56,050 nucleotides of DNA from a virus: positions 1 to 56,050 of IMG/VR virus record IMGVR_UViG_3300025085_000026; one strand, given 5' to 3'. The position numbers were made by a program, and so were the translations under genes. Of the stretch, positions 14,001 through 47,259 are shown one piece after another; the stretch's first letter is position 1; the number at the start of each line of letters is the position of its first letter. The notes below the pieces were generated by a model. That model searched no databases and was not told the origin of the DNA. It saw only the letters and a list, made by a program, of their open reading frames with translations.

Positions 14001-17000
14001 GATCATCTTTTTGAAGGCTAACTCCAGTATATTGAGCTACGACCATTGACTTAAATCCAGTCGCCTTAGATCCATCCGCCCACATGCCGCATTGACCCCA
14101 AGTAGAGCGGATCGAGCAGTTAAACACATAAGGAGATGCGGACTCAACAGAGTCAATTTCCGCAAGAACTACCGCGTTTGTAGAGACTCCACCGACTTCA
14201 CCAGAGAAATAAGTTTGACCAGATACAAGTCCAAGTGATGCTGCGGTATTATTGTATACTTCATACTCAAATACCTTAGGATTAACCTGATCAATCTTGG
14301 TAACCTTCCAGGTTCCGTTGATTTCATCAGATAGTCCAGAGTTAATGATAGCAACGTACTGACCTTCAAAGTAACCATGATCAATCTTGGTGACAATGGT
14401 AATGTTTGAATAACCGAATTGCGAAACGAATGAAACTGAACCAGCACCACTAATTGCTTGAGTCAGGGTAACTGTGTTACCAGAGATAGATTCAATTCTA
14501 GTGTTAGGATTGATAACTACGCTTACATCACTAGATGTAACTGTTGCACCAACGTTGAGTTTGCTGGTATCAGATACATTAACTAGTTGATCCGTGCTGT
14601 TAGCAGTTCCGATGAATGTAGTGGAATCCTCAACTTTAATACTCTCGATAGTTCTGCTATCAGATAGAGGACCAACGATTCTGTTTTCTTGAACCAGTGC
14701 TTCTAGTCCACCATCATCGATAGTTGGTTGGAATTGCTGGAATGACTTACCTACTTTTTCGTAGTAGTTATCAAGATCTTTAGAATCTGCATACTCCATG
14801 ATGCAAATTTTATGGTGAGAATACTCAGGAATTGCTAGTTGAGTAGAACCACGCTTGTTATAAACTTTACCGACACCTGCAGTTGCATCATACAGAGGAG
14901 ATTGTGCAGAAAGATCACCATCTTTGATAGTGAACTGCCAGATATAACAACCACCAGTTAGGTTGAAGATACAAGTTCTGTCTTGTGTAGTATCAGCAGG
15001 ATCAGGAACATACAGAGGACGAACAACTGTACGACGTAGGTCATAACCGATTAGAGAACAACCTCTAGGAACGATACAACCACCTTTTTCTGCGTTAAAC
15101 TTATAGAGAACGTTGTCAGGATTGCTTAGATCAACAATTGAATTATCCTGCCACTCTTCCAGTGCTCTATTGTAATTGAAGGAAGGAAGAACACCAGTAA
15201 CTTTAACAGATGCCAGATCGTCAAGATTTCCGACTGAAATAACGTCAGTTAGAATCGTGATCAATGTATCAATAGTTGCCTGAACATCTTGACATGTTGC
15301 TAGATTGCCAGATCCAGTAAAAGGAATTACAGGAGTATTAGCACCAGCAATAGCAGGTCCAGGAGAGATTGTCAGATCTTTAGCAAACAATCTGTTGGTA
15401 ACTGCTCTCTTTGCCCAATAACCAATAGCACCAAATGCAGTGACAGATTCTGCTTCTTCGCCTAGAAGACCATTAGAAATTGGATTACCGAAGCGGTCAA
15501 AATATGCTTTAGTGTTAGTAATGGTGTTAGCATTACCATCAGTTCCTAGGTCATCAATCAAACCATCAACAATAATACCAGCATCACGCTTGCACTTAGC
15601 ATGACCAGTAGAGACTTGGGTAGAAATTGTTTCTGCGGGAAGTTGTGAAAGATTCTCGTCAGTAACAGCAGTGATAACAATAGCACCCAATGTGTCAATA
15701 GCAGACTGAACGTCAGCACATGCAGCAGGGTTACCAGATTGTAGGTTTTCCTGTGGGTTGTTGGTGTTACCAAAGATAGCATCACCAGGAGTGATACCAT
15801 TAGGACCAGAATCTTTGAAGTAAAGCTGATTAGTAATCGCTTTCTTCATCTCACCGATTGCAAAGTTAAATGCAGTCAGTGACTCAGCAGTTTCACCTTG
15901 GAGACCATTAGAAACCCAGTTAGTTCCAGACTCATCAAAGTAATTTTGTGCAAGTTTTCTCGTATATACGTTTCCACCTGCTTCATGAACATCAAGGGCA
16001 ATAGCGTCAACAAATTGACCAATGTCACGCTTACACTTGATCTCGCCATCAGGGAGAATTGTGGAACTCGTTTCTGCAGGTAGAAGAGAACTGAGTAGGA
16101 AAGTACCATTGTTTGCTGCTAGATTTGCATCATCGAAGATTGTATCAACGATAGCATATAGCGTATCCACCATGTTCTGAATATCAGTACAGGCATTAAC
16201 AGAAGTGTTAGCAACTACTCCGTTACCATCACCATAAACTGCTTCACCAGGAGTTACTGTCAGATCCTTATACTCATTACCAGGAGATGATGTAGAAGTG
16301 AAGTTATTAGTCATTGCTGACTTCATCAACTCAATTGCTTTAGCAAATGCAGTCAATGCAGAAACTTCTTCTCCACGAAGACCACTGGTTGCATCATGAA
16401 CAAGACCATTTGTTAATGCACTAACGAATGCATGTGTAGATTGTGGTTCGTGCTTAATTGCTTGAGCAGTTGCACTAACAAATGTATGAGCTGATGTATC
16501 AGAAGAAGTACCAACGTTAATTGTAAACGTACCATCTTGACGTTCAAAAGCACCAGTTCCACCAACAAAAGTGTGAGCACCAGTATACTCGGAAGGTCCT
16601 ACATCAATTGTAATTGTATTTGTATCAACAACCGTGATATCCAACCAACGACCTGATGGATAATCAATACCAGGACGAGGATAAGATTTAGTCTCTTGGT
16701 TGCCATCTAGGACACATGTATACTCCAAAGAGTTGTCTTCAATCTTGATGTAATCTCCAGTAGAGAATCCATGATTTGCAACTGTTAGGGTAACAATGTT
16801 AGTTGTTGCATCGTATGGAGCATCAGTTGCTGTATGTGATGTAGAACCAACACTAGCAATAGCAATAGACTTACCAGCGAAAGGATCACTACCAGGACGT
16901 GGATATGTCTTAGGTTGTGTAGGATCAGTTAGGCAAGTGAATGTAAAGGAGTTGTCTTCTAGAACAACACCACGACCAACACCTAGACCATGCTGTCCAA

Positions 17001-18120
17001 CGGTGACTTCCATGACACCAGTTGCAGGATCATATGTAGCAGCAGATGGTTGGAAATACTTATTAGGACCAGAAACACCACCATTGAATGTGATAGTATT
17101 ATTAGTAGTCTGAGTTACAGAGAATCCTTTAATTGCGCCAGGATCAATACCAGAACGAGGATAAGATTTAACTGCTTGATCACCATCCATGTCGCAAGTG
17201 AACGACAAAGCACCTGCTTCTAGGAATACTCTATCATTAACAGCAATGTTATGATCATTAGCAAAGGTAATTGTAGTGCTACCATTTGCGGGATTGTATG
17301 CTGCGTCAGTTGGAGTATAAGAAACTCTGCTTCCTACCCAATCAGTACCAGCATCATTAAAGTAATTAGTAATATACTTTCTAGTATACTTGTTACCACC
17401 ACCTTGCTTAACATCAAGTGAGATAGCATCAATCAAGAACTTGATGTCGCGAACACAACTACCAGAGTTATAACCAGGAGGTACAGGATCAGGACGAATA
17501 ATAGCATCCATATGATCGAATGCATCTTGTGCAATCAGATCTTTATTTCTTTGGATGAGATTATATCCATCATTAAATCTAGACCACTCACCAGTAGCAG
17601 CATCATTAGGGTATACAAAATCAGGGTGTTGAACAGAAATTTCAGCAGCAGATCTATCAATGATCTCTTCTCTGTTCTTCTGAATCAGACGATATGCGTC
17701 CTTATAACGAGACCATGCACCTGTTTGTGGATCACCAGGATAGAAAAAATCTGGATGTTGTACTGATACTTCTGCTACTCCACGATCAATAACTTCCTGA
17801 CGATTTGCCTTCAGGAGGTTAGATGCATCAAAATATCTTGCTTCTACTGCAGTTTCTGTTACAAGACCTGGGCGGTTATCAATATAGTGATTACCTGGCA
17901 TCAACATGATGCTGAACTGGTCAAACCTGTCGTTATTTGCTCCAGGTAGATATGAATATCTAGATACTTCGATAAATGCCCTTTGAATCGTCTTAAATGG
18001 ACGTAAAGGTGAATTTCCTCGGTTGTTCAGTTCATCAGTAGCATTAAAGTCATCTGGAGATACATAGAGGTATTTTCCAGTCTTACTTGAATACAAGTTA
18101 TCAAGTCTTGTTAGCGGCAT
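5050..18120 (-). CDS. Giant repetitive virion fibre/adhesin protein (4356 aa)
   Basis: At 13 kb this one gene fills about a quarter of the window. The N terminus (LYVSPDDFNATDELNN, then SPLRPFKTIQRAFIEVSRY) resembles the start of phage pectate-lyase-like beta-helix proteins. Two copies of a roughly 43-residue unit ending HPDFxYPxDxxTGxWSR follow, then three YPRPG(I/S)D modules, then at least five diverged units starting C(K/V/E)RD. Later come beta-rich stretches and a C-terminal fibre tip with VNYFVDVSGTTLFKLP. Two-thirds of the way in, TTTIRNSLKV- and NGGDFVVNQN-type beta repeats appear. Proteins of this size and make-up are known virion structural proteins in cyanomyoviruses. It has its own late promoter; it is Asn/Thr/Ser-rich and lacks a signal peptide. 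Confidence 0.85.
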   Translation of the reverse strand: MPLTRLDNLYSSKTGKYLYVSPDDFNATDELNNRGNSPLRPFKTIQRAFIEVSRYSYLPGANNDRFDQFSIMLMPGNHYIDNRPGLVTETAVEARYFDASNLLKANRQEVIDRGVAEVSVQHPDFFYPGDPQTGAWSRYKDAYRLIQKNREEIIDRSAAEISVQHPDFVYPNDAATGEWSRFNDGYNLIQRNKDLIAQDAFDHMDAIIRPDPVPPGYNSGSCVRDIKFLIDAISLDVKQGGGNKYTRKYITNYFNDAGTDWVGSRVSYTPTDAAYNPANGSTTITFANDHNIAVNDRVFLEAGALSFTCDMDGDQAVKSYPRSGIDPGAIKGFSVTQTTNNTITFNGGVSGPNKYFQPSAATYDPATGVMEVTVGQHGLGVGRGVVLEDNSFTFTCLTDPTQPKTYPRPGSDPFAGKSIAIASVGSTSHTATDAPYDATTNIVTLTVANHGFSTGDYIKIEDNSLEYTCVLDGNQETKSYPRPGIDYPSGRWLDITVVDTNTITIDVGPSEYTGAHTFVGGTGAFERQDGTFTINVGTSSDTSAHTFVSATAQAIKHEPQSTHAFVSALTNGLVHDATSGLRGEEVSALTAFAKAIELMKSAMTNNFTSTSSPGNEYKDLTVTPGEAVYGDGNGVVANTSVNACTDIQNMVDTLYAIVDTIFDDANLAANNGTFLLSSLLPAETSSTILPDGEIKCKRDIGQFVDAIALDVHEAGGNVYTRKLAQNYFDESGTNWVSNGLQGETAESLTAFNFAIGEMKKAITNQLYFKDSGPNGITPGDAIFGNTNNPQENLQSGNPAACADVQSAIDTLGAIVITAVTDENLSQLPAETISTQVSTGHAKCKRDAGIIVDGLIDDLGTDGNANTITNTKAYFDRFGNPISNGLLGEEAESVTAFGAIGYWAKRAVTNRLFAKDLTISPGPAIAGANTPVIPFTGSGNLATCQDVQATIDTLITILTDVISVGNLDDLASVKVTGVLPSFNYNRALEEWQDNSIVDLSNPDNVLYKFNAEKGGCIVPRGCSLIGYDLRRTVVRPLYVPDPADTTQDRTCIFNLTGGCYIWQFTIKDGDLSAQSPLYDATAGVGKVYNKRGSTQLAIPEYSHHKICIMEYADSKDLDNYYEKVGKSFQQFQPTIDDGGLEALVQENRIVGPLSDSRTIESIKVEDSTTFIGTANSTDQLVNVSDTSKLNVGATVTSSDVSVVINPNTRIESISGNTVTLTQAISGAGSVSFVSQFGYSNITIVTKIDHGYFEGQYVAIINSGLSDEINGTWKVTKIDQVNPKVFEYEVYNNTAASLGLVSGQTYFSGEVGGVSTNAVVLAEIDSVESASPYVFNCSIRSTWGQCGMWADGSKATGFKSMVVAQYTGVSLQKDDRAFIRYDRLTNTWNQASLTDAFATIPYHTKGDAYWKDDWRNFHIRASDDSFVQCVSVFAVGFFDHFLMESGGDMSITNSNSNFGNTSLHSVGFKGFSFNQDKGGYITDIIPPGTINESTTIINQWYTLDVSASKSRNNHTKLYLAGDDVNDPESRPASSINGYRIGAKTGETLAVDLSRYPSEPAGPLEFTSKISPSGFKSWTVGIETLTPASAAVDNYAQDAANRIEDNKELIQNESYQYIVTKYPELLSNPNIVIGKCERDIGYFVDAVVNDLRLGGNINSIQAAEGYYIQGQLSYIFNELNETLDALDYVKSMMIAAMRNFDYLIRDCSLTPNSAIVNVGDTSGLIIGMKVNEYTPSSFTNGKLNASPTEITTNLDGNSFIKQIISDTQIELGVPGARLSFGSTRPVQSTSPGTTSSFLYFTLPQGSWSAITPTTDPTITQDSRVDPISGDPLPECSNIATTIDGYFEQIFLVLNSGYSVLGGTEVDASNAITDNARFIASEAVFRIANDPAYAGTKLGQGLLASTGETIEDACIDDVETVLNEIAYNIRFGGNNKVYAAAELYITSASVIGEQTESIAAFNLARDLAINAMRQETITVQGTHGLTQVIDNTIIPDYDANGNLVTPPCAGIANNITTLTALITSAIQGTLVGSITMPTFASVTRVEPNTNLSGLSARATLFTLATGTFAGNPNPHDLETGTAVRLIPRAKAGQNPDKRVVRLPDGFKTNTKYYVIAPGRNLYPENFSLSATAVSVTEAAGTSFTAPNTTRATATGLYRSLVAQPKVAGDGTALASGTGLRFNIQVNADGSLQLGDGVNLDGIANGGSRYQNGDVVVISDGQLGGTGAPDIEIEITAVSTAEYPGVFDGTETNKMMLATSPENAAAGIYMYSPETDSVDPDVEIYIEQYVLDGNYDLHKYKSNVVGASEIETNVAHIFDVPASNTTSQQVFVRIATDIAGSTLPQLSGSAASINTNTLYFVRYVSNKRVTLHETAADAESGDRALTFVSGTGNNFYLYANKRPSPLVFDPEFTTTGNNSGLWYLNVEDESNSGNSGTYNRYSILSRFHGGVELVNDFQTKTDPTLDTRYLRVEDERGKEDRVYRMRYVVPSYLETVRDPLNGFVIKCRTDDKRRLVPQRVLLKPIPGNPNNVASFFNPTNAGEQIGLNKSELIADQVRTIDPSVVDLLPEQQNLYDPYLEPKVIEFDSKISATIQSARKVQPILGSSDEFLEVTLFDHTIVNQSVKNEIFTVVRCNFLQGGFFTANATQSNDANKITWETVGGGTVQGEAYLQSYINDIETSQAVLVLKGVVGELDFIAGNVVLFKQGAVQIQLVETPNSFGDIARLDKAKRDNYLYRVEGANVYTIAPGDIVTDDTGQNAYFVATIEDQGNFDDSFYIFDINTLQERIANQQDGIYYLTCLRGNISPFPQGSGVGENFRNFKFSQPISQLYPINYKNDPLWFQVDGGTGVRDTSIVDVPATISAADNYVHGLVTVNDAKGSETKEMITDAISNSFLNRFTYTNVTTDSNGNIIDNRIQGQEGNATSGSEDRLIPISGDSQFPTERKLYVELRRPSIARSGNHTFEYLGFGPGNYSTGFPLRQEVVLTDKQDFYAQAKREDGGIVFYTGLNSNGDLYIGNKKVNAITGEETFLESASLIDSEDDDENIGTLVTTFDSPVTFNSTIVVAGKSSLNGPVEINVEASEGDALRVLSNISADEDQTLFAGSWRTQSDGDILLSGNKIRSAVFVLNARPKPSAQYGQSYTWRTNYLGSEPSNLTPWQDEDTAFYGTQVVEYGANLLKDPAAGDLLYKGSYVGESGSLGWILANKFTSFAAKIFRITADGTKNLTVEFAATFTNENVKILQDSQIRIINFSNNVLNGDWEVVDGTWSETGVTFQFQISTEIGAGTIYTATDWAGGDIQVSSKQWKEQGVLGAETIRTYTDERGDYRLGVNTVARTAFDAVLSNNVNEFTTPRANLDVVGTAFISGKTLVSYDVNGVVQENRYDNVGQDSGGNTIVNINGLGNLNSDQREGLTGALLTQKGFIPQDNALLVGGDSNNLDQPATLRVATSDDLTPGTTYTAGGRVGINTALGVTPERELDRNLVVVGDGRITGNFLISDDISVDGGDINTTSQAFNLINNNATILNFAGDAQLIDMFSNTSNDQTITIGANADFQTVRIGTNVPRSIFSVHALSENAFVDIATVADDADKDSQVFIGGAWGNADSKVVLGSAQTITGGTLEVGSKVAAGTGEARIFTQTGKARLFDDDRTQQVEAFTKANKITIASLGGTTTIRNSLKVQASATVDSSIILDGGTTAGIIEIVRERFSTPISLHNLGSLDTPNIDFYKYKSTGRVIDTPGVRLWGGSQDIAGGGRISGFDNLQAPDPSNLRVSGQYAFRFATGGSGSGAAFDISVAFDGTVSVEVVSTGTGYADNQQLTIADSLIGGGGAPDITLDINGVTDSSDVFILPISTPGAGDFDIGDLILLDRGNSASPNNIIVTGGGSITGLRDQAKSEIMRVVGLDNVTNPSDGQGFRISVTRAEEGTGDPTTQTSLGRSGWIDHPDGTVIAKLDKQPAASFITGKDIGSPGQPTVPDGIIDEPRSGIDSSTANVRIGVAEFGGVLTTLDLLRLDGAEIVGIADVISTDVQALIVNDGGSPAVENFRVNSTTGDTTIAGNVGIGLGFNQFTINGANGNTNINGTTTIENTLTLNGSTIVNQQFFTITNGGPSFQNDGVTVATPLRTTFEIDTANGNVTMNGGNLNIYAVDGTTERLTLTGAGDLTVYGSLSAEGDGLSKFGGPVQIAGDLTVNGGDFVVNQNGNEVFAVDDDGSLNIAGISNYISPTGGMKWVVANTSIINADANVNYFVDVSGTTLFKLPVNAQMGDMVRIIDISGILSYDKSLVVRAQSLVNVQGSQSNTGTTVTGNTLGENFSLTHNGGELVVQTPNAAFGLVFCGEVDADGNGGANPNKAGWYLMDV

Positions 18121-18194: not shown

Positions 18195-18266
18195 CTCCCA
18201 AGGCTGGATTTGAACCAGCGACCAGCCGATTAACAGTCGGCGGCTCTGCCACTGAGCTACTTGGGA
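18195..18266 (-). tRNA. tRNA-Asn (GTT anticodon)
   Basis: 72-base cloverleaf read by eye: acceptor TCCCAAG/CTTGGGA, D stem GCTC/GAGC, anticodon stem GCCGA/TCGGC with loop CTGTTAA (anticodon GTT), T stem GCTGG/CCAGC with loop TTCAAAT, discriminator G. CCA is not encoded. It sits just before the late promoter of the Asn-rich giant fibre gene and after the last gene of the accessory block, so it is probably processed from that upstream transcript. Confidence 0.95.
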
Positions 18267-20421: not shown

Positions 20422-20658
20422 TCACACCAGTAAACCTTTATCACTCATGTAATGAAGTGTATCGTGCATGTTACCAAGATGCTTAGCACCAATAGCAACC
20501 TGAGGATATGTTGCCCCAGATCCGAACTCTGCTTCAAATGCTCTTTGAGTAAAGTGTTCGTTAAGTTTGTATTCTAGGAATTCACCACCTAATGATTTAA
20601 GTAGTGAGGTCATACGCTCACACTCTTGACTGCCGTTAGAATAAATTACTGCTTGCAT
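20422..20658 (-). CDS. Glutaredoxin-like protein with a single active-site cysteine
   Basis: 78 residues with the thioredoxin-fold order of a glutaredoxin: beta strand VIYS, active-site loop at residues 7-14, cis-proline motif TYPQVAIG (P52) and the GSH-binding end KHLGNMHD. The usual CPYC is replaced by NGSQEC, leaving only C13, which aligns with the second Cys of the normal pair. It cannot do the standard dithiol cycle as T4 NrdC does, so a monothiol, glutathione-binding or structural role is more likely. Start lies 12 bases inside the preceding gene. Confidence 0.78.
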   Translation of the reverse strand: MQAVIYSNGSQECERMTSLLKSLGGEFLEYKLNEHFTQRAFEAEFGSGATYPQVAIGAKHLGNMHDTLHYMSDKGLLV

Positions 20659-20849
20659 GGGGGTTCTTTATATGTGATAGTGATTTGTTTATATACTTCA
20701 TCTCGATTGTCGCTGTTATAAACATTACATCGATCGATTTTAGCATTTAATATATTCACTACATTATCTAGTTGATGTTCAACTATAAACTTTTTAAATC
20801 CATCATCCATCCAACTCTTGTTAGATCCTGGTGCGTTAAAATCATCCAT
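20646..20849 (-). CDS. Hypothetical protein, 67 aa
   Basis: Unrecognised small protein, mixed charge, no membrane segment or metal motif. Its ATG at 20849 shares a base with the purS stop, and its end overlaps the glutaredoxin start, so it is locked into the purS-grx transcript. Confidence 0.65.
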   Translation of the reverse strand: MDDFNAPGSNKSWMDDGFKKFIVEHQLDNVVNILNAKIDRCNVYNSDNRDEVYKQITITYKEPPCKQ

Positions 20850-25128: not shown

Positions 25129-25242
25129 TTAGTTTGCTTGATACGATGGGACCATCATACCACCATCTTGATCATCATCATCGTCAGGATTCTGAATAAC
25201 AAAGTAGATGATCATCAGTGCAACCCATGCTAAAACGTACAT
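25129..25242 (-). CDS. Small single-pass membrane protein, 37 aa
   Basis: Read directly from DNA. One hydrophobic helix (YVLAWVALMIIYFVI, residues 2-16) followed by an acidic run of five Asp and a Met/Pro tail. Its ATG overlaps the psbD stop as TGATG, so it is coupled to D2 synthesis. By size and topology it resembles low-molecular-weight photosystem II subunits, but I cannot match it to a named one. Confidence 0.75.
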   Translation of the reverse strand: MYVLAWVALMIIYFVIQNPDDDDDQDGGMMVPSYQAN

Positions 25243-26297
25243 CACAGAGCGTTGCCTCTTGGCAATACTTCCTCAGGGAATACAAAGTCTTCATGTGGTT
25301 GATCAACTGGTGCCAACCATGCACGGAGTCCTTCATTCAATAGGATGTTCTTGGTGTAGAACGTCTCGAACTCAGGATCTTCTGCTGCTCTGATCTCTTG
25401 ACTCACGAAATCGTAAGCACGAAGATTGAGAGCAAGACCAATAATGCCAATAGAGGAGACCCATAGACCCATAACAGGCACAAACAACATGAAGAAATGC
25501 AACCAACGCTTGTTAGAAAATGCAACGCCGAAGATCTGCGACCAGAAGCGGTTTGCAGTGACCATAGAGTAAGTCTCCTCCTCTTGTGTTGAATCAAATG
25601 CCTTAAAGGTGTTTGCCTGCTCACCATCTTCATACAATGTGTTCTCTACTGTAACACCATGAATGGCAGAAAGCAATGCACCACCTAGGATACCTGCTAC
25701 TCCCATCATGTGGAAGGGATTGAGTGTCCAGTTGTGGAATCCTTGTAGGAACAGAAGGAATCGGAAGATTGCTGCTACCCCAAAGGATGGAGCAAAGAAC
25801 CATGAAGACTGACCCAGTGGGTAGATAAGGAAGACGCTGACAAAGACAGCGATAGGACCACTGAATGCAATAGCATTGTAGGGACGGATGCCGATGAGAC
25901 GTGCCAGTTCAAACTGGCGGAGCATGAAACCTATGAGAGCGAATGCACCGTGGAGAGCAACAAAGGACCAAAGCCCTCCAAGTTGACACCACCTGACGAA
26001 ATCTCCCTGAGCCTCAGGACCCCAAAGTAGAAGAAGAGAATGACCCATAGCGTCAGCAGGCGTTGACACAGCCGCTGTAAGGAAGTTAGCACCTTCGAGG
26101 TACGAACTTGCAAGTCCGTGGGTGTACCAACTTGTAACAAATGTCGTGCCCGTAAGCCAGCCACCAATTGCAAGATAAGCAGTGGGAAGAAGAAGAAGTC
26201 CAGACCAACCCACAAAGACAAAGCGATCCCGTTTAACCCAGTCATCAAGGACATCAAACCACCCCCTTGTCGGTTTTACTAGTGTTGTTGTCGTCAT
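25242..26297 (-). CDS. psbD: Photosystem II D2 protein
   Basis: 351 residues, the full D2 length. N-terminal [26 protein letters not shown], five hydrophobic helices, the quinone/heme-iron region with HGATVENTL-type loop (here [15 protein letters not shown]) and the C terminus [12 protein letters not shown] are all D2 hallmarks. D2 pairs with D1 to bind the P680 chlorophylls, pheophytins, QA and the non-heme iron. It lies 2 kb downstream of psbA in the same direction with ferredoxin and a small membrane protein between. A phage copy replaces host D2 lost to photodamage during infection. Confidence 0.97.
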
Positions 26298-26943: not shown

Positions 26944-28023
26944 TCAACCGACAGAAGGTGCAATGAGTGCCACAGGTGTGGACTCAGCAGCAGCGAGATC
27001 GAGTGGGAAGTTGTGAGCGTTACGCTCATGCATAACTTCCATACCCAGACCTGCACGGTTGAGAACGTCTGCCCAGGTGTTGAGCACACGACCCTGACCA
27101 TCAAGGATGGACTGGTTGAAGTTGAAACCGTTGAGGTTGAATGCCATGGTGCTTACGCCCAGTGCAGTGAACCAGATACCAACCACAGGCCATGCAGCAA
27201 GGAAGAAGTGAAGACTTCTGCTGTTGTTGAAGGATGCGTATTGGAAGATCAAGCGACCGAAGTACCCATGGGCAGCGACGATGTTGTAGGTCTCTTCTTC
27301 TTGACCGAACTTGTAACCATAGTTCTGGGACTCAGTTTCAGTCGTCTCACGGACGAGTGAAGATGTAACCAGACTTCCATGCATAGCAGAGAAAAGAGAT
27401 CCACCGAATACCCCAGCAACACCGAGCATGTGGAACGGGTGCATAAGGATATTGTGTTCTGCCTGGAATACAAGCATGTAGTTAAAAGTACCAGAGATAC
27501 CAAGAGGCATAGCATCGGAGAATGAACCTTGACCGAACGGATAGACTAGGAATACTGCACTTGCAGCAGCGACTGGTGCTGAGTATGCAACACAGATCCA
27601 TGGACGCATACCAAGGCGGTATGAGAGTTCCCACTCACGTCCCATGTATGCATAGATACCAATGAGGAAGTGAAAGACTACGAGTTGGAAAGGACCACCG
27701 TTATACAACCACTCATCGAGTGATGCTGCTTCCCAGATGGGATAGAAGTGGAGACCGATTGCGTTTGAACTTGGGACAACTGCACCAGAGATGATGTTGT
27801 TGCCATACATGAGTGAACCAGCAACTGGTTCGCGGATGCCGTCAATATCGACGGGAGGTGCTGCTACGAAAGCAACGATGAAGCAGATGGTTGCCGCCAA
27901 CAGTGTTGGGATCATCAGTACACCGAACCAACCAACATACAAACGGTTGTTGGTGGAGGTGACCCACTCGCAGAACGATTCCCACGAGGAAGTTGATTGT
28001 TGTTGTCTTGAAAGCGTGGACAT
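26944..28023 (-). CDS. psbA: Photosystem II D1 protein
   Basis: 359 residues, uninterrupted (no intron). Typical D1 sequence throughout: [21 protein letters not shown] at the N terminus, [33 protein letters not shown] with the QB-site stretch, [20 protein letters not shown] with the Mn-binding His/Glu. The C-terminal extension after DLAAAE is 16 residues, removed by CtpA after Ala344 in mature D1. Phage D1 replaces the rapidly turned-over host subunit, sustaining photosynthesis during infection. It has a dedicated promoter, a 140-base structured leader and a strong terminator. Confidence 0.98.
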
Positions 28024-31275: not shown

Positions 31276-31325
31276 GATCGTCTCTCTCCTACTTATTCTA
31301 CTGTGTTCGGGGGGCGTAACCCCGA

Positions 31326-31399
<74 letters not shown>

Positions 31400-31402
31400 A
31401 TG

Positions 31403-41751: not shown

Positions 41752-42131
41752 TTAGAACTCTTGCCAGCGGCCTTGTCGTCATGATCCTGAGTCATCTGCA
41801 TCATCTTCTGCTTCATGCGATCCTTTGCTTTCTTTTTAGCATCGGAGTCATCCACCTTAGCAGCAGCGGGTGCTTCACACTCTTCTTTCTTAACGTCTTG
41901 ACCTGGTTCATACCACTTGCCATCACCATCAGAATCCTGCCAACGCTTACCTGCCTTGGCGGCCTTGATGTTCTTCGCTTTCTTCTTAGCGGATTCTCTG
42001 AGAGACTCCACCTCGTTACGAACAATTTTTCTTAGTGATTCGGACATGAGATCTTCCTTCTTAGGGTTGATAATTACGTTACCTTTCTTCTGAGTGGTAG
42101 TAATGTTTTGTTTGACTTGATCGGTCTTCAT
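41748..42131 (-). CDS. Lysine-rich protein with a calcium-loop-like motif, 127 aa
   Basis: Charged, mostly disordered (KKKAKNIKAAKAGKRW). A DSDGDGKWYEPG segment matches the DxDxDG loop of EF-hand/Excalibur/dockerin-type calcium sites. The C-terminal half is Lys/Asp/Met-rich (KKKAKDRMKQKMMQMTQDHD). Its ATG overlaps the stop of the 510-residue gene. Together they look like head scaffold or DNA-packaging-related proteins of T4-like cyanophages, but this is inference. Confidence 0.72.
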   Translation of the reverse strand: MKTDQVKQNITTTQKKGNVIINPKKEDLMSESLRKIVRNEVESLRESAKKKAKNIKAAKAGKRWQDSDGDGKWYEPGQDVKKEECEAPAAAKVDDSDAKKKAKDRMKQKMMQMTQDHDDKAAGKSSK

Positions 42132-43660
42132 TGATCGAGACCCATTTCAGAACGCCATGAATATGTATTCTCTTCTCCCATGCGTCTTGCTACGCCACGA
42201 GCACCACGGGAAACTGAACGAGCAACGCCGCCCACAACTTTCTTGATACCAGACTTAATTTTATCACGCAGTCTAGTGCGTGGTTCACTGCTAGAACTAC
42301 TGGAACTTCCACTGTTGTTGCTAGTAGAACCAGAGGAATCGGATGATGTAGAACTACTACCACCTGATGTAGAACTACCTTGGGATCCACGCTCGTAACC
42401 TTTCTTGAAGTTACTAGCAGCGCCCTTAGCAGCACGACCAGCGGCACCAGCAGCATACCCAGCACCCTTAGATGCAGCAGAACCTGCCTTTTTGAGACCA
42501 GACTTAACAGCAGATCCAGCAGACTTCAATGCTGCTTTCATCTTCTCGCGTCGTGCTCCGACCTCAGGTTTTGCCTCAGGTTTCTTATCACCAAGACGCT
42601 TACGTGCCTCAGCACCAGCATCTCTACCAGCACTCTGACCTTGACCAGAAGAAGCAGATGCTTTGTCCTTCAAGCGAAGAGCGTTGACCTTAGCAGGACT
42701 GGTGACCTCAGTCAGCAGATCGATACCATCTAGGATCTCAAAGGTTTCTTGAAGATCTTCGATGTCGAGTTCGTTAAGTGCCTCTACACAGATGTCATGC
42801 AGTTCTTCAAACGTATAGTCATCGAATGCTTCATCAAGAATAATCTCATTGACGAGTGCATCAAACTCTTCGTTCTTCTTTTTGAGTGCTGCCTTACGGA
42901 AAGTAAGATCCGTGCGACTGCCGCTGTCCATCTTGCCCTGACTCTGTGGTTTCTTAGAACCACCAGCAGGTTGAGGACCAGCATCACTACCAGTTCTTCT
43001 GCCCTGAGCATACTTAGATCCACTGGACTTAGAGTCACCAGAGATCATCTTACCAGCATCGGAACGACCGTCCTGATACTGCTTCTCAGTCTGACCGTGC
43101 TTACCCTTGTAGAGTTCGTCAATCTGATCCTCTTCCTTCACGCAGTTAGGAACTTCCTTACCACCTTTCTTCTTAGTACCCTTCGCCTTATATCCATCCC
43201 AACATGTAGAAGCACCAACGTTCTTACGTGCCGACTTCATACCCTCAACCATCTGGTTGTGGAGATCATCGATATCAATCCACTCCCTCTGCATATTCAA
43301 ACCGATATCTTCGGGTGCCTTAGCAGTCTTCTCGCCTTTCTTACCGACAACAGAATAACGACCATCAGACTTCTTGCCTGTGATCACCATAGACTGACCA
43401 CCTTGTGAGATCACTCTACCGATATTACGATCATCTTTGAACTTACCTTTGTTCTTAGTGATCAGATCTTTTTCGATAGGGAACCCAGCGTATCCTTCTA
43501 CGACTTCTTCGTGCGAGTCGATAATCTCTTCGACTGTGGTAACTGCGGATCGAAGACGAGCGGTGGGTGCCTGCTTACCTTCCTTCACGCAGTCGAGAAT
43601 TGTGCGCTGTTCTAACAGGGAGAACCCCATTAGTGCAGCACTAACCTTGATATCCAGCAT
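42128..43660 (-). CDS. Large lysine/serine-rich structural-type protein, 510 aa
   Basis: Start at ATG 43660 rather than further upstream: MLDIKVSAALMGFSLLEQRT gives an ordered opening with a late octamer 24 bases before. Residues about 15-190 are folded (VGKKGEKTAKAPEDIG; NMQREWIDIDDLHNQMVEGM), the middle is Gln/Gly/Lys-rich with a CWDGYKAKGTKKKGG motif common in cyanophages, and the C-terminal 150 residues are low-complexity Ser/Gly runs and alternating Lys/Ala/Gly, ending in a compact Arg-rich segment. Function unknown; a virion or prohead-core role fits the lateness and composition. Confidence 0.7.
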   Translation of the reverse strand: MLDIKVSAALMGFSLLEQRTILDCVKEGKQAPTARLRSAVTTVEEIIDSHEEVVEGYAGFPIEKDLITKNKGKFKDDRNIGRVISQGGQSMVITGKKSDGRYSVVGKKGEKTAKAPEDIGLNMQREWIDIDDLHNQMVEGMKSARKNVGASTCWDGYKAKGTKKKGGKEVPNCVKEEDQIDELYKGKHGQTEKQYQDGRSDAGKMISGDSKSSGSKYAQGRRTGSDAGPQPAGGSKKPQSQGKMDSGSRTDLTFRKAALKKKNEEFDALVNEIILDEAFDDYTFEELHDICVEALNELDIEDLQETFEILDGIDLLTEVTSPAKVNALRLKDKASASSGQGQSAGRDAGAEARKRLGDKKPEAKPEVGARREKMKAALKSAGSAVKSGLKKAGSAASKGAGYAAGAAGRAAKGAASNFKKGYERGSQGSSTSGGSSSTSSDSSGSTSNNSGSSSSSSSEPRTRLRDKIKSGIKKVVGGVARSVSRGARGVARRMGEENTYSWRSEMGLDQ

Positions 43661-43682
43661 TGATCTAGGGAAAAGTATAGTA

Positions 43683-44729
43683 TTATTTATTGGAAATAGA
43701 CTTTTGATTCTTGACGAACTCACTGAACTTCTTCATTTCCTGCCCAGGAGTCATGTTCTGAACCGCTTGTCTGTACTTGTCGGTACCAACTTTCCAGTCA
43801 TTACCACTACCATCGTCGGCAGAATGATTGGATTGGTTGTCACTTACTTCACTAATATCCTGCAACCAAGTGCGGTGTTCAGTGCCGTCAGGCATCTGCA
43901 TGATGACATAGTTAGTACCTCGGTGAGCAACTGTGCCACGCATACCACTGTCGTCATGCTCTACAACTGCACCAACCTTAAAGATATGATCTAGCATATA
44001 ATGATCTCGGAATGCTGCAAAGTCTAGCACAGGTGCATACTCCCAGACAGATTCCTTAACCTCTGCTTTCTTCTTAGCAGGTGCTTTCTTCTTCTCAGGT
44101 GGTTTCATGCCGTCAACGACATGTTGCATCATCTCTTTGCTCTTCTTATAACCACCAGATCCAGCATGGAATGCGTCGTGGTTACCACCTTGTGCATGTT
44201 TTCTCATCTCACTGGCGGATAGTTTCTCTACTTCATCCTCACTGTCAGGGTTACGAGCACCAGCAGATTTGATATTGATAGACTTGAAGTCGTAATGCTT
44301 ACCGTTGTACTTCGATGTCAGATTCTCAAACTCTTTGACACGATCATCACCAACAACCATAGTGACATGCTCATGACCCTCATCATGTAGGTCACGTAGG
44401 ATGTCAAAGATATTTCTATGCTGCTCAGAGTTCTGAATAGCATCCTTGTGGTTCTTAAACATGCCACGCATGTGTTCAATCTTCTGCTCAGGGTGCAGAG
44501 GATTCTTCTTATGATCTTGTGTTCTAGAAGGATAGATCCGATAGTTACCAGAGTCACCAGCATGTGACTTGACAGCATCCATCAACTTACCATGACCAGC
44601 ATGGGGAGGGTTGAACCTACCGAAAGTGATGGCAACATGCTTGTCTATTACCTCATTCTTCTTCTTAGAAGATGATGCTTTCTTGGCAACAGCGGCTGCT
44701 GCTTCGATAATGAACTGACGAAACCTCAT
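43683..44729 (-). CDS. Nucleotidylyltransferase-fold protein (HxGH)
   Basis: 348 residues from the ATG at 44729, overlapping the stop of the upstream gene (ATGA). Residues 31-50 (HVAITFGRFNPPHAGHGKLM) contain the GRFNPxHxGH phosphate-binding motif (H43, H46) of cytidylyl/adenylyltransferases such as NMNAT; the LSASEMRKHAQ stretch resembles the ISSTxIR motif. The C-terminal third has an SH3/KOW-like beta segment (VVEHDDSGMRGTVAHRGTNY). The reaction is probably transfer of AMP or CMP to an unknown substrate; NAD synthesis is the default guess. Confidence 0.82.
   Translation of the reverse strand: MRFRQFIIEAAAAVAKKASSSKKKNEVIDKHVAITFGRFNPPHAGHGKLMDAVKSHAGDSGNYRIYPSRTQDHKKNPLHPEQKIEHMRGMFKNHKDAIQNSEQHRNIFDILRDLHDEGHEHVTMVVGDDRVKEFENLTSKYNGKHYDFKSINIKSAGARNPDSEDEVEKLSASEMRKHAQGGNHDAFHAGSGGYKKSKEMMQHVVDGMKPPEKKKAPAKKKAEVKESVWEYAPVLDFAAFRDHYMLDHIFKVGAVVEHDDSGMRGTVAHRGTNYVIMQMPDGTEHRTWLQDISEVSDNQSNHSADDGSGNDWKVGTDKYRQAVQNMTPGQEMKKFSEFVKNQKSISNK
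43684..43691 (-). promoter_or_regulatory. Late-promoter-like AATAAATA
   Basis: One mismatch from the T4 late octamer, minus strand, 24 bases before the ATG of the 510-residue gene. It overlaps the stop codon of the nucleotidyltransferase gene, as at 19773. Confidence 0.5.
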
Positions 44730-45922
44730 TTGCCCCAATCTTTTGCTACGGTAAAGTTTGCACGAGAGAATTCAAGTCTATCAACAAGTTTGACTGCCAT
44801 GCCATCCTTGATGGCCACAAATCCTTCTGGACTAGTGACTTTGTATCCTTTCTCATCTTCTAGAAATGTACCAACACCCTCAATTTTTTTGAGGCGTTCG
44901 ATGATCTGCTTCTTAGCGTTAATGAGATTCATAAATCCTCCCAAAGCAGCATAGATTACAGACTTATCACTATTTAGTTGTTTTAGTGCCTCCTCTTTTT
45001 TCTTTTCCCAGTTTTCCTTTGCCTTAGGCGTCTTCACACCTTCCACTTTCAATGCATATCTAGACTCAACAAAGGTTTTGAACTGAACCAACATCTGCGA
45101 TGAACTAGTAGGCATCTTACCTGACTTGATCACTTGGTTGAAATAAATCTTAAACAAACCAGCAGTTCCCATACCCTTAGTAGTACCACCGATCTCATTC
45201 AAGAACTTCCTAGATGAATCCAAGTTGCGCTTCGCAGTTCTCATACTCATGTTGAGTTTGTTCATCTCACCAGCACTGAGGTTTGCAATGCCGTTGGTAT
45301 TGGTGAAGTCTGATGAGAATACTGCCACATCAGACACACCTTGAAGACCAGAAACATTAACACCAAAACCAGCAGACATTTCAGCAAGAGTCTGACCAGT
45401 GTACTTAGTATGAAATACAATACCAACCGTAGACTTACCTACCTTGCCACCCATCTCGGTTGCTTTCTCTACACAGTAAGTAATAGTATTAGGTTTGAAC
45501 TTGTAGCATCTCTTGCCACCCATAGTAACCAGTGGTGGTGTCTCTGTATACAGAAGATCTCCTTGGATCACACCAGTGATAGGCAACTTTGATAGGTAAT
45601 CGTATGCAGCAACCAACTTAGGATGCACACCAGTGCCGCCATACCATAGGTCAATCTCTTCATGGGAGTAGCATACCTTAGGTTCAGTCTTAGCAAAGAC
45701 AGACTTGGTTCCAACAAAGAACATGTCCGTCTCAGGGTCTATGCCACAGATGATAGCAGGAGCACCGTCCCACTTCACAGTAACCTTAGTATTACCACCA
45801 CCACTACCAGTGGTCAGCATACCTTTTAGACCCTCCAAGAATGCAAGTGCATTCTGAGCGCCAGCATAACCATTGTTGAAGATGTCATCTTCTAGGTGTT
45901 CGAGGTGTGTGTTCTTACTCAT
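44726..45922 (-). CDS. Candidate ATP-dependent ligase-superfamily nucleotidyltransferase
   Basis: 398 residues. KWDG at residues 50-53, in a beta-strand setting (VTVKWDGAPAIICG), matches motif I KxDG, whose Lys is adenylated in DNA/RNA ligases. Candidate motifs III (VIQGDLLY, 118-125), IIIa/IV (VGIVFHTKY, 166-174) and IV/V (SPEGFVAI...AVKLVD, 364-380) follow in the right order. An RNA or DNA ligase-like or capping-type activity is inferred. Overlaps both neighbours by four bases. It could alternatively be an inactive relative. Confidence 0.6.
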   Translation of the reverse strand: MSKNTHLEHLEDDIFNNGYAGAQNALAFLEGLKGMLTTGSGGGNTKVTVKWDGAPAIICGIDPETDMFFVGTKSVFAKTEPKVCYSHEEIDLWYGGTGVHPKLVAAYDYLSKLPITGVIQGDLLYTETPPLVTMGGKRCYKFKPNTITYCVEKATEMGGKVGKSTVGIVFHTKYTGQTLAEMSAGFGVNVSGLQGVSDVAVFSSDFTNTNGIANLSAGEMNKLNMSMRTAKRNLDSSRKFLNEIGGTTKGMGTAGLFKIYFNQVIKSGKMPTSSSQMLVQFKTFVESRYALKVEGVKTPKAKENWEKKKEEALKQLNSDKSVIYAALGGFMNLINAKKQIIERLKKIEGVGTFLEDEKGYKVTSPEGFVAIKDGMAVKLVDRLEFSRANFTVAKDWGK

Positions 45923-47259
45923 GGTTGTACTCCGACTTTATCGCGGTAAGGGTTGCCAATAGATGATTTCTCTCTGAGGTGATACTGGTCTGTGGGTTTG
46001 AGGTTGTTCTTCAAGTGGTTTTCCATGTAGAAGACTGGCATTCCTTTGTTCGTAGCGAACTTGTAGTAGGTGACCTCCTTCATAACAAAGTGCTCAATGA
46101 CCTCACGATACACCAGGTCACCATCCTTGCTGATCTTTCGTAACATCATTTGACAGATGAGAGAGGCGATGCCAACTTTGCCACTACTGTGCTTGGGTGC
46201 TTCCCAGTAGTCCTTAGCATCATTATAATACATCTCTGCCAGTTTCAACCAGGAGGCTTGTGCCGCTTTGACATCTGATTCCTTAGGGTCACCACCCTTC
46301 ACCATAGCATCAATGTTTTTGACCACCTCTGTGGGTAATTTTGTCTTTAATTTAAGGTCCTTAGCAATCAATTCCAGTGCAAGGAAAGAACCATCCTTCA
46401 CTTTGTTCTCAGCAAGAACTTGTAAGATCTTAAACTCAATAGTCTTCTTATATTTCTCAACCCAATCATCTTTCTTACCATCAATCTGTTTCTTATTGAT
46501 AAGAGAAATAATATCCTGAGGTTTGACTACGTTAGTTGTCTTACTGATCTTCTTAACGGAGAAGGGGTATGATGTATTTTCCTCATCAAATATAACAAAG
46601 TCAATCAGTGGTTCATTACCCGCAGCAGGTAGGAATACCTGTGCATTATTCTTATTTAACCTACCATACCCTAGTTTATCTAAGTCAGCAGCACCACGTT
46701 CCAATACACATAGTGGAGCAGTAATCTCAGAGAAATCTTTCTCCACGTTATTCATAATATCAATGTATTCTGATGCTGCTAAGTCTGCATATGCTTTAAG
46801 TAGTTCCTTCTTCTCAGTAGCACCATGCTCCATACAAAAATCTGTTAGTTCAATTAGATACTCTTTGATTACCAGTTGAAGATCATCCCTTTTGTTAATA
46901 GCAGCGATGACTTTCTTATAGTAAGTATCAAAAGACATCTTAGTATCCATAGGAATGTCAAACGCCTGAGGTTTTAACTCGGGCATCTTCTTCTTACCTG
47001 TGGCAGACCTAGGTTTACCTAACAAAGGAGTAGAGATCCACCCCGACTTGTCATTCTGATACAAGACTTCTATTCTGGCCTGGTAGTTACCACCTTTGAT
47101 GGGTTTAACATGAACACCATCACCCTTAGCGATAACTCCTACCTTTGTTTTACTCTTAGCACCATCGTATACAACGATCTCTTTCTTAGATACAATCTCA
47201 AATCCTTTTTGGTAATGACGTTTGTAGTCATCCCATGCTTCTTTAATCGATCTTGCCAT
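45919..47259 (-). CDS. Candidate PD-(D/E)XK nuclease-like protein
   Basis: 446 residues. A beta-rich N-terminal domain (about 20-85) is followed by a helical region and, at 215-250, by LIDFVIFDEE then SYPFSVKKISKTTNVVKPQDI. The D220...S234-V-K236 arrangement followed by TTNVVKPxDI resembles motifs II and III of restriction-type PD-(D/E)XK nucleases, with Ser in place of Glu as occurs in some. The C-terminal half is helical and charged. It is the first gene of a three-gene overlapping set. Identification is by motif only. Confidence 0.5.
   Translation of the reverse strand: MARSIKEAWDDYKRHYQKGFEIVSKKEIVVYDGAKSKTKVGVIAKGDGVHVKPIKGGNYQARIEVLYQNDKSGWISTPLLGKPRSATGKKKMPELKPQAFDIPMDTKMSFDTYYKKVIAAINKRDDLQLVIKEYLIELTDFCMEHGATEKKELLKAYADLAASEYIDIMNNVEKDFSEITAPLCVLERGAADLDKLGYGRLNKNNAQVFLPAAGNEPLIDFVIFDEENTSYPFSVKKISKTTNVVKPQDIISLINKKQIDGKKDDWVEKYKKTIEFKILQVLAENKVKDGSFLALELIAKDLKLKTKLPTEVVKNIDAMVKGGDPKESDVKAAQASWLKLAEMYYNDAKDYWEAPKHSSGKVGIASLICQMMLRKISKDGDLVYREVIEHFVMKEVTYYKFATNKGMPVFYMENHLKNNLKPTDQYHLREKSSIGNPYRDKVGVQP

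What the first reader, a model, noticed from the sequence alone, without database searches (positions are those of the whole stretch)
43683..47259. Coupled nuclease-like, ligase-like and HxGH nucleotidyltransferase genes
Seen: three genes read in the same direction with four-base ATGA-type overlaps. They carry, in order of translation, a D...SxK motif, a KWDG motif followed by candidate motifs III-V, and GRFNPPHAGH. Known: KxDG marks covalent nucleotidyltransferases (DNA/RNA ligases, capping enzymes); GRFxPxHxGH marks nucleotidylyltransferases; D-(E/S)xK marks PD-(D/E)XK nucleases. Inference: this could be a nucleic-acid break-and-repair, end-processing or RNA repair system, with the third enzyme making NAD or a nucleotide cofactor. 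A T4-like parallel is Pnkp/Rnl1 repair of tRNA cut by host anticodon nucleases, but the genes are not related to those.
Basis: partly seen in the sequence, partly recalled or inferred. Interest (0 to 1): 0.78.

Follow-up and report, generated by a model that had tools for sequence, protein, structure and literature searches.

The report
Packaged nuclease, ligase and adenylyltransferase genes
A virus of marine cyanobacteria carries three linked genes: a restriction-enzyme-like cutter that close relatives swap for quite different cutters, an RNA-ligase-like enzyme, and a nucleotide-making enzyme that bears a tag for packing into the virus head. Together they look like a kit injected into the host at infection.

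Summary
Three minus-strand genes overlap by ATGA and carry D..SxK, KWDG and GRFNPPHAGH.

Gene 2 is Pfam DUF6267, a family of unknown function. Its invariant residues fall on ligase motifs I, III, IV and V. An AlphaFold model aligns best with RNA ligases (NgrRnl Z 8.0), although no sequence search links them.

Gene 1 is an SH3b domain plus a restriction-enzyme-like body (MspI Z 5.5). In relatives this slot is polymorphic: ten groups without detectable relation occupy it, mostly D..SxK. One is a clear type II restriction-enzyme relative. Near-identical phages exchange it, ORF for ORF.

Gene 3 is NMNAT-like and starts with a T4-type capsid-targeting peptide (MRFRQFIIEA; T4 IPII/IPIII: MKTYQEFIAEA). 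A homologue is reported from S-SCSM1 virions. In that record the neighbouring 'virion protein' is a nuclease of this slot. Genes 2 and 3 are fused in S-PM2.

Best reading: a conserved cyanophage/pelagiphage kit with an exchangeable nuclease, at least partly packed in the head and injected, which cuts and/or repairs nucleic acid early in infection. Target, activity and the ligase's role are unproven.

The parts
45919..47259 (-). Gene 1: SH3b-like domain (residues ~18-84) plus restriction-endonuclease-like body (D220...S234-V-K236); nuclease superfamily 'C' of the polymorphic slot
   Evidence: invariants; model and fold matches; superfamily
46552..46602 (-). D220 to K236: candidate PD-(D/E)xK core, SxK variant
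   Evidence: D220, S234, V235, K236 invariant in 25 sequences; predicted strands 221-224 and 230-237
44726..45922 (-). Gene 2: DUF6267, RNA-ligase-like nucleotidyltransferase with a helical insert (~205-348) between motifs IIIa and IV
   Evidence: (PF19782, 7.7e-127)
45764..45775 (-). KWDG, motif I, candidate adenylated Lys50
   Evidence: invariant K50, D52, G53
44768..44827 (-). EGFVAIKDGMAVKLVDRLEF: motifs IV (E366) and V (K378)
   Evidence: compare T4 Rnl2 EGYVLKP...AIKCKNSKF
43683..44729 (-). Gene 3: HxGH (NMNAT-like) nucleotidylyltransferase, from the ATG at 44729; reading frame open from the TTG at 44738
44700..44729 (-). MRFRQFIIEA: T4-type capsid-targeting sequence at the N-terminus of gene 3
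   Evidence: T4 IPII and IPIII; literature PMC9026906 section 2.6
44592..44621 (-). GRFNPPHAGH, HxGH nucleotide-binding motif
   Evidence: PF01467 1.1e-7
42128..43723 (-). Next gene downstream (531 aa as called), a likely companion virion protein
   Evidence: blastp to S-SCSM1 gp089, annotated 'virion protein', 46.5% over 144 aa, E 2e-24

Best explanation
The three genes are a conserved module of T4-like marine phages. Gene 1 is a restriction-endonuclease-fold nuclease (SxK variant of PD-(D/E)xK), and its slot behaves as an exchangeable effector cassette. Gene 2 (DUF6267) is an RNA-ligase-like covalent nucleotidyltransferase. Gene 3 is an NMNAT-like adenylyltransferase with a T4-type capsid-targeting N-terminus. 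Gene 3, and in at least some relatives the nuclease, is packed into the prohead (propeptide expected to be cut after the Glu of FIIE) and enters the cell with the DNA. There, in the first minutes, the nuclease cuts DNA that is not protected (host chromosome or resident/rival DNA), while the ligase and the adenylyltransferase seal breaks and/or supply the adenylated cofactor (NAD+ or ATP-derived). Shown by computation: gene order, motifs, fold resemblance, fusion, cassette swapping, capsid-tag resemblance. Reported by others: virion detection of homologues. Inferred: catalysis, target, injection of this phage's own proteins, and the division of labour.
For: DUF6267: invariant K50-D-G, Q120/D122, H171-T-Y174, E366-G-x-V, K378-x-V-x-R. 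Fold: rows 1-23 of the VIA list are all RNA or tRNA ligases, from few proteins (9 NgrRnl entries; 6vt3 Z 8.0, 181 aligned, rmsd 3.9; T4 Rnl2 6.9; Rnl1 6.7), then DNA ligases from Z 6.0. Gene 1: body aligns with MspI (Z 5.5, 192 residues) and HinP1I (Z 5.2, 165); viral Foldseek finds S-PM2 GC841 (E 4e-12, 16% id), which lies directly after the fused gene 2-gene 3 of S-PM2. Slot: 278 of 308 sequences with an upstream ORF fall in superfamilies A-L, 12 nuclease blast clusters, ten groups if the weakly linked A, B, F are joined. Superfamily E hits PADLOC type II REase (2.4e-21, 3.3e-9, 1.2e-8). Exact swaps between near-identical phages; of 57 DUF6267 groups at >=95% identity, 12 hold more than one superfamily, 8 more than one blast cluster, 6 with A, B, F joined. 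Gene 3 follows in 258 of 264 nuclease loci that have a downstream ORF and is fused to DUF6267 in S-PM2. Capsid tag: strict pattern in 63 of 137 distinct gene 3 N-termini, 26 of 154 DUF6267, 10 of 656 control ORFs. S-SCSM1: NMNAT homologue in virion MS (PMC9602691), starting MKSFLQFLKEA; its 'virion protein' neighbour gp282 is a superfamily A nuclease (45% to L202, E 9e-118).
Against: No sequence or profile search links DUF6267 to ligases; Foldseek alone gives nothing significant (best E 0.45; an RNA ligase, 6vtd, only at E 2.2). Fold Z-scores for genes 1 and 2 lie where unrelated folds can appear; unrelated helical proteins reach Z 6.1 in the same list. The acidic residue of (D/E)xK is Ser, so gene 1 may be inactive or use another acid. 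Genes 1 and 2 of this window have no capsid tag. T4 IPI and Alt fit the strict tag pattern poorly, and a second, 67-aa window ORF also meets it. DUF6267 of S-SCSM1 lies at 221 kb and its NMNAT at 89 kb of a circular 229 kb genome, and it is not annotated as a virion protein. The authors of both proteome papers caution that virion detection may be carry-over. No enzyme activity, target or phenotype is known.
Confidence: 0.5

Rival explanations
1. Injected anti-defence kit: the restriction-enzyme-like proteins are mimics or inhibitors matched to variable host restriction enzymes (as T4 Ip1-3 each block one GmrSD subtype), the ligase repairs cleaved tRNA, and gene 3 restores NAD+ depleted by host immunity.
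For: Capsid tag like T4 internal proteins; T4 Ip1-3 are subtype-specific restriction inhibitors (PMC12373910 passages); Ser in place of the catalytic acid; RNA-ligase fold; NMNAT-like gene 3.
Against: Superfamily E is close to type II restriction enzymes and the D, S and K residues are strictly kept, which argues for catalysis. An ExK version also occurs (superfamily I, FELK; L161, EVK).
Confidence: 0.25
2. Homing-like or marker-exclusion nuclease: the cassette spreads by cutting rival alleles at its own slot, and repair copies it in.
For: Exact ORF-for-ORF replacement with 98-99% identical flanks (L228/L230); 12 of 57 tight groups mixed, 6 of 57 by the most cautious grouping.
Against: Ordinary homologous recombination under diversifying selection gives the same footprint. 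Packaging of a homing enzyme is not expected, yet the S-SCSM1 relative is annotated as a virion protein. Conserved linkage to ligase and NTase is unexplained.
Confidence: 0.12
3. tRNA or RNA repair as in T4 Pnkp/Rnl1, with gene 1 an RNA end-processing nuclease.
For: Best structural neighbours of DUF6267 are RNA ligases.
Against: None of the three proteins is a recognised kinase/phosphatase (one weak tRNA-ligase-kinase match of gene 3, E 0.03, below cut-off). Gene 1's body resembles DNA restriction enzymes and one slot family is related to them. Two tRNA genes in the window.
Confidence: 0.08
4. Structural role: these are prohead-core or internal packing proteins whose enzyme motifs are vestigial.
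For: Virion annotation of the neighbours gp089, gp282, NMNAT, gp280 and gp279 in S-SCSM1.
Against: Full conservation of catalytic motifs down to 28% identity; ORF-for-ORF exchange between different families.
Confidence: 0.05

Closest known systems
T4 internal proteins IPI-IPIII and Alt (capsid-targeted, injected)
   Same: N-terminal FxxF[IL]xE-A peptide like that of IPII/IPIII, one residue shorter before the first aromatic in this window, at the same positions in S-SCSM1; homologue reported in virions
   Different: Enzymes (NMNAT-like, nuclease-like) rather than small restriction inhibitors or an ADP-ribosyltransferase; the tag is on gene 3 here, not on all three
Chlorovirus packaged restriction endonucleases (PBCV-1; PMC7019647 passages)
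   Same: Restriction-type nuclease carried in a virion and thought to attack host DNA at once
   Different: No methyltransferase annotated beside the triad in eight neighbourhoods looked at; nuclease gene swapped among different families; ligase and NTase partners
T4 Rnl2 / Naegleria RNA ligase family
   Same: Motif order I-III-IIIa-IV-V and predicted core fold; motif IV-V segment EGFV...AVKLVDRLEFS is like EGYV...AIKCKNSKFS
   Different: ~145-residue helical insert before motif IV, HLEHLED N-terminal motif, no detectable sequence homology
NMNAT / NadR / archaeal HxGH adenylyltransferases
   Same: GRFNPPHAGH, Pfam PF01467 match, weak NCBIfam NaMNAT and NadR matches
   Different: Far below the NMNAT curated cut-offs; C-terminal SH3-like domain (recalled from its sequence pattern, not modelled); linked or fused to DUF6267, not to a Nudix or kinase domain
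Polymorphic effector systems with constant leader and variable nuclease
   Same: Pelagiphage-type members share one leader (RQLNP..ES..HVDKIQ..) over different nuclease bodies
   Different: Carried in phage genomes and perhaps heads; no immunity gene recognised

Membership tests
Covalent nucleotidyltransferase / RNA ligase superfamily (gene 2) | Motifs I (KxDG), III, IV (EGxV) and V (K) conserved in order | tested here: met
   invariants K50, D52, G53, D122, E366, G367, V369, K378; I-III and IV-V spacings are near those of NgrRnl (mutant names: K170, E227, E312, K326); motif names recalled
Covalent nucleotidyltransferase / RNA ligase superfamily (gene 2) | Ligase adenylylation-domain fold | tested here: inconclusive
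Covalent nucleotidyltransferase / RNA ligase superfamily (gene 2) | Sequence-profile homology to a known ligase | tested here: not met
Covalent nucleotidyltransferase / RNA ligase superfamily (gene 2) | Lys50 self-adenylation | not testable with these tools
   needs protein
PD-(D/E)xK nuclease (gene 1 and slot) | D ... (D/E)xK core | tested here: inconclusive
   D and K kept, acid replaced by Ser; loose pattern in 25 of 31 slot subfamilies (helicase and other fillers included) against 9 of 52 control families, strict SxK form 19 of 31 against 5 of 52; the patterns were made after seeing the families
PD-(D/E)xK nuclease (gene 1 and slot) | Restriction-endonuclease fold | tested here: inconclusive
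   MspI Z 5.5 and HinP1I Z 5.2 over 192 and 165 residues
PD-(D/E)xK nuclease (gene 1 and slot) | Homology of a slot family to known restriction enzymes | tested here: met
   superfamily E: PADLOC REase_II 2.4e-21 (L044), 3.3e-9 (S-PRM1), 1.2e-8 (L288); superfamily I only a weak Pfam PDDEXK_5 match, E 0.07; not shown for the window's own superfamily C
Restriction-modification system | Companion methyltransferase next to the nuclease | tested here: not met
   no methyltransferase annotated beside the triad in S-WAM1, P-SSM4, Melnitz, S-WAM2, S-PRM1, HTVC008M, P-HM1 and S-PM2, annotation only. Outside the cyanophages an adenine methyltransferase does lie between DUF6267 and the cytidyltransferase of XaC1, and a methyltransferase overlaps or adjoins gene 3 homologues of two E. 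coli jumbo phages (H175, H176)
NMN adenylyltransferase (gene 3) | HxGH motif and nucleotidylyltransferase domain | tested here: met
   PF01467 32.5 bits over cut-off 21
NMN adenylyltransferase (gene 3) | Curated NMNAT family score | tested here: not met
   TIGR00482 24.3 bits against 112.45; TIGR01526 19.1 against 341.15
T4-type internal (capsid-targeted) protein (gene 3) | N-terminal capsid-targeting sequence | tested here: met
   MRFRQFIIEA against MKTYQEFIAEA; of 172 window ORFs of 60 aa or more, two meet the strict pattern, gene 3 at its start and a 67-aa ORF at 20646-20849 from residue 14; pattern made after seeing the sequences
T4-type internal (capsid-targeted) protein (gene 3) | Presence in the virion | not testable with these tools
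   homologue reported in S-SCSM1 virions, a cytidylyltransferase in S-CREM2 virions; the window's own protein unknown

The most novel reading that the evidence does not exclude
A virion-delivered polymorphic weapon system: T4-like marine phages carry an interchangeable restriction-type nuclease cassette in the head, paired with a constant covalent ligase (DUF6267) and an NMNAT-like enzyme that recycles its cofactor or protects self. Cassette exchange changes which host, resident element or rival phage DNA is destroyed at injection.
Probability: 0.3. Interest if true: 0.88.

Novelty: new variant of a known kind. Interest (0 to 1): 0.7.

Why it matters
DUF6267 and its neighbours sit in hundreds of phage records, mostly of Synechococcus and Prochlorococcus phages (467 records match gene 2 and 528 match gene 3 at E 1e-5). 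In the records opened here they carry little more than 'hypothetical', 'cytidyltransferase' or 'NMNAT'. If the reading holds, it explains why NMNAT-like proteins keep turning up in cyanophage virions, gives a fold-level function for a Pfam family of unknown function, and reveals a swapped nuclease locus in abundant ocean phages. Each step can be tested with purified proteins and virion proteomics.

Tried and rejected
Sequence routes to the ligase family failed. hmmsearch of the 9-row DUF6267 profile against PDB sequences gave only chance hits, as did a profile of its first ~205 residues. hhalign to an alignment of 28 sequences (T4 Rnl2 and relatives; count) gave no relation. So the ligase claim rests on motif order plus the fold comparison. 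Foldseek alone found no significant match for gene 2; an RNA ligase stands at rank 27 with E 2.2.

For gene 1, the Foldseek and VIA lists are filled by the SH3b domain; of the 50 VIA rows shown only MspI and HinP1I cover the body. Ten representatives gave no Pfam match over cut-off (nine of slot proteins, one of DUF6267 itself, which did match its own family). NCBIfam gave none over cut-off for ten slot proteins. PADLOC was convincing only for superfamily E; P-SSM4's slot protein had weak matches (E 0.001 and 0.01) taken as chance. A phmmer search of L288 against PDB found nothing useful. Gene 3 had no PDB sequence match at E 0.1. A weak Pfam match of gene 3 to a tRNA-ligase kinase domain (E 0.03) was taken as chance. 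One viral-contig scan with the Vibrio member returned no relatives.

I considered and rejected an ordinary restriction-modification system (no methyltransferase annotated beside the triad in the eight neighbourhoods listed) and a T4 Pnkp/Rnl1 pair (no kinase among the three). Literature: no paper of the library contains the word DUF6267. Two surveys of phage NAD and conflict systems were seen as passages only, and the passages shown do not mention this module. Sullivan 2010 was searched for a few terms only. Other listings seen. That nobody has described the module rests on these searches and on recall.

Sampling and rows dropped: the 320 IMG/VR loci are the best 80 from each of four capped scans (141, at least 600, 193 and 326 relatives found), plus 8 annotated phage loci and the window: 329 sequences. 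Of these, 308 had an upstream ORF of 150 aa or more and 310 a downstream ORF of 100 aa or more. 19 have a helicase in the slot, and 11 single ones were left unclassified. Only complete ORFs entered the family patterns.

Full report
Observation. The window is a 56,050-base virus record. Of six other window proteins scanned, two are photosystem II D1-type, one a ribonucleotide reductase small subunit, and the rest a virion protein, a tail fibre and a PurM-type enzyme. A DnaB-type helicase and MazG lie just upstream of the triad. So it is a cyanophage. Both junctions are ATGA overlaps if gene 3 starts at the ATG at 44729. Synechococcus phage S-WAM1 has gp41 helicase - mazG - two small genes - gene 1 - gene 2 - gene 3; there gene 2 is 78% and gene 3 83% identical to the window's, and gene 1 belongs to the same superfamily C. 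The linked triad, with other first genes, occurs in P-SSM4, S-WAM2, S-PRM1 and P-HM1 and, with one or two genes between gene 2 and gene 3, in Melnitz and HTVC008M. The slot genes of P-HM1 and HTVC008M belong to superfamilies A and D.

Gene 2. It is Pfam DUF6267 over its whole length, a name that no paper of the library contains. In 41 sequences down to 28% identity the invariant residues include H6, H9, E11, D12; K50, D52, G53, P55; F69, K73, S74, F76; Q120, D122; P144, N145, T146, Y149; H171, T172, Y174; E366, G367, V369; K378, V380, R382, F385, N389, F390. This is the order of ligase motifs I, III, IIIa, IV and V (motif names recalled). The AlphaFold model (pLDDT 81) has no significant Foldseek match (best E 0.45; an RNA ligase at E 2.2). 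In the VIA second look, rows 1-23 are all RNA or tRNA ligases, though from few proteins: Naegleria Rnl Z 8.0 (181 aligned, rmsd 3.9), RNA editing ligase 7.0, T4 Rnl2 6.9, T4 Rnl1 6.7, fungal tRNA ligase 6.5. DNA ligases follow from Z 6.0, mixed with unrelated helical proteins (highest Z 6.1). The insert between motifs IIIa and IV is helical. Sequence-profile searches do not support the link. I hold the ligase-type fold as likely, about 0.85, and an RNA rather than DNA substrate as open.

Gene 3. PF01467 and PHROG 395 (cytidyltransferase) match it; NCBIfam NMNAT models match far below cut-off. PHROG 455 matches gene 2 and gene 3 in one profile, and S-PM2d138 (591 aa) is a direct fusion of the two. 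Its N-terminus MRFRQFIIEA resembles MKTYQEFIAEA of T4 internal proteins II and III; T4 IPI (MKTFKEFTSTT) and Alt (MELITELFDED) fit less well. In T4, ten residues suffice for packaging, residues 4 and 7 matter for targeting and 8 and 10 for cleavage (PMC9026906 section 2.6, whole section read). Related gene 3 proteins start MKKFSAFLTEA, MKFKKFLMEA, MRFIEFIREA, and S-SCSM1 has MKSFLQFLKEA. A strict pattern, made after seeing these, hits 63 of 137 distinct gene 3 N-termini, 26 of 154 of DUF6267 (pelagiphage type) and 10 of 656 control ORFs. In the window it hits 2 of 172 ORFs: gene 3, and a 67-aa ORF at 20646-20849. Not all gene 3 proteins have it: a large group starts MALNCNTCYFTFGRF or similar.

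Gene 1 and its slot. The model (pLDDT 88.7) has an SH3b-like domain (2evr Z 7.8) and a body that aligns with restriction enzymes MspI (Z 5.5, 192 residues) and HinP1I (Z 5.2, 165). Of 329 DUF6267 sequences (328 loci, most from capped lists, and the window), 308 have an upstream ORF. hhalign grouping gave superfamilies A 112, C 71 (the window's), G 30, D 22, B 14, E 9, F 8, H 6, I 2, J 2, K 1, L 1, 278 in all; 19 have a helicase there and 11 are unclassified. A, B and F are weakly linked (B-F probability 85 over 73 columns, A-B 48, A-F 28), and A and B share one blast cluster. The other cross-group links with probability above 20 that I inspected cover only 24-46 columns at the N-terminal ends, that is the shared leader. 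Joining A, B and F leaves ten groups with no detectable relation. Most subfamilies keep D...SxK (25 of 31 by a loose pattern against 9 of 52 control families; 19 against 5 by a strict one; post hoc). Superfamily I and L161 have the classical ExK. Superfamily E is a clear relative of a type II restriction enzyme model in PADLOC (2.4e-21). Viral Foldseek with the window protein finds S-PM2 GC841 (E 4e-12, 16% identity), which sits directly after the fused gene 2-gene 3 of S-PM2 and has LIDYKV...ISVK.

Exchange. L228 and L230 are 98.6% identical over 3.8 kb before the slot and 99.4% over 5.9 kb after it, with identical DUF6267, but hold superfamily J and D; the identity stops at the nuclease start and resumes within 40 bases of its end. 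L172/L178 (A/B), L208/L196 (B/A) and L271/L277 (G/E) show the same at 81-95% flank identity. L123/L125 (F/G) also share the leader. Of 57 groups of loci with DUF6267 at least 95% identical, 12 hold more than one superfamily, 8 more than one blast cluster, and 6 more than one group when A, B and F are joined. In pelagiphage-type loci, 18 slot proteins from six blast clusters share the leader RQLNP..ES..HVDKIQ..; one other ORF of 3,991 has it (post hoc pattern).

Virion evidence. In S-SCSM1 the NMNAT homologue (37.8% to gene 3, E 4e-58) was detected by virion mass spectrometry (PMC9602691 section 13, read whole). The S-CREM2 virion also contains a cytidylyltransferase (PMC10665884 section 19, read whole), whose relation to gene 3 I did not test. 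Both author groups warn of possible carry-over. In the S-SCSM1 record, gp282 next to the NMNAT is labelled virion protein. It is a superfamily A nuclease (hits 88 slot proteins of A at E 1e-3, best 45% over 452 residues, and 1 of F). gp089, also labelled virion protein, is related to the window's next gene (46.5% over 144 aa). I saw the record's labels, not the mass-spectrometry table. The DUF6267 protein of that phage (gp115) is elsewhere and not so labelled.

Linkage. Gene 3 follows in 258 of 264 nuclease loci with a downstream ORF; loci were chosen by DUF6267, so this is conditional. In isolate records that appear both in the gene 2 lists and in the gene 3 list (20 accessions out of lists of 60, many of them related strains), 17 have the two adjacent, one small gene apart or fused, and 3 do not: S-SCSM1, ACG-2014f KJ019098 and MA10. 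S-SM2, P-SSM5 and a Vibrio phage carry DUF6267 with no cytidyltransferase annotated in the 6 kb flanks. In the Xanthomonas jumbo phage XaC1 the two lie about 3.5 kb apart with an adenine methyltransferase between them.

Mechanism. The simplest reading that joins fold, tag, virion labels and exchange is a set of enzymes partly delivered from the head, whose nuclease is under strong diversifying pressure. PBCV-1 gives a precedent for packaged restriction enzymes that attack host DNA within minutes (PMC7019647 passages). T4 Ip1-3 give a precedent for capsid-tagged proteins diversified by host restriction (PMC12373910 passages). A ligase beside an NMNAT would fit an NAD+-consuming ligase whose NMN product is recycled, or separate repair of host-inflicted damage; this is inference. 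The confidence of 0.5 is for the joined statement; parts of it (fold of gene 2, exchange of the slot, capsid tag of gene 3) I hold higher.

Noticed in passing
L164, L158, L138, L168 (DUF6267 ORFs, first ~115 residues): An extra N-terminal domain (FTRHFMDRVNDARN...AKTVMRK) is fused to DUF6267; that of L164 matches PHROG 23027 and 14518, function unknown.
   Followed up: partly
window 42128-43723 (-): The protein after gene 3 is Ser/Lys-rich with a CWDGYKAKGTKKKGGKEVPNCV segment; it matches 12 PHROG families, none with a known function bar one named cytidyltransferase, and part of it is related to an S-SCSM1 virion protein.
   Followed up: partly
window 43683-44738 (-), residues ~242-300: The C-terminal segment of gene 3 also matches PHROG 4808, a small family named ribonucleotide reductase alpha subunit, probably a misnomer.
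   Followed up: no
window 25242-26297 and 26944-28023 (-): Two photosystem II D1-type genes (PHROG 182), probably psbD and psbA, in keeping with a cyanophage.
   Followed up: no
window 5050-18120 (-): A 4356-residue tail fibre protein.
   Followed up: no
window 18195-18266 and 31324-31400 (-): tRNA-Asn (GTT) and tRNA-Arg (TCT) genes.
   Followed up: no
window 20646-20849 (-): A 67-aa ORF also contains the capsid-tag pattern (MDDGFKKFIVE from residue 14); not examined further.
   Followed up: no
Loci (Melnitz / HTVC008M type): Some slot nucleases share a leader RQLNP..ES..HVDKIQ..xE over different bodies; it may be a second type of packaging signal.
   Followed up: partly
L331 (Xanthomonas phage XaC1): DUF6267 and a cytidyltransferase lie about 3.5 kb apart in a jumbo phage of another host, with an adenine methyltransferase between them; gene 3 homologues of two E. 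coli jumbo phages also adjoin a methyltransferase.
   Followed up: no
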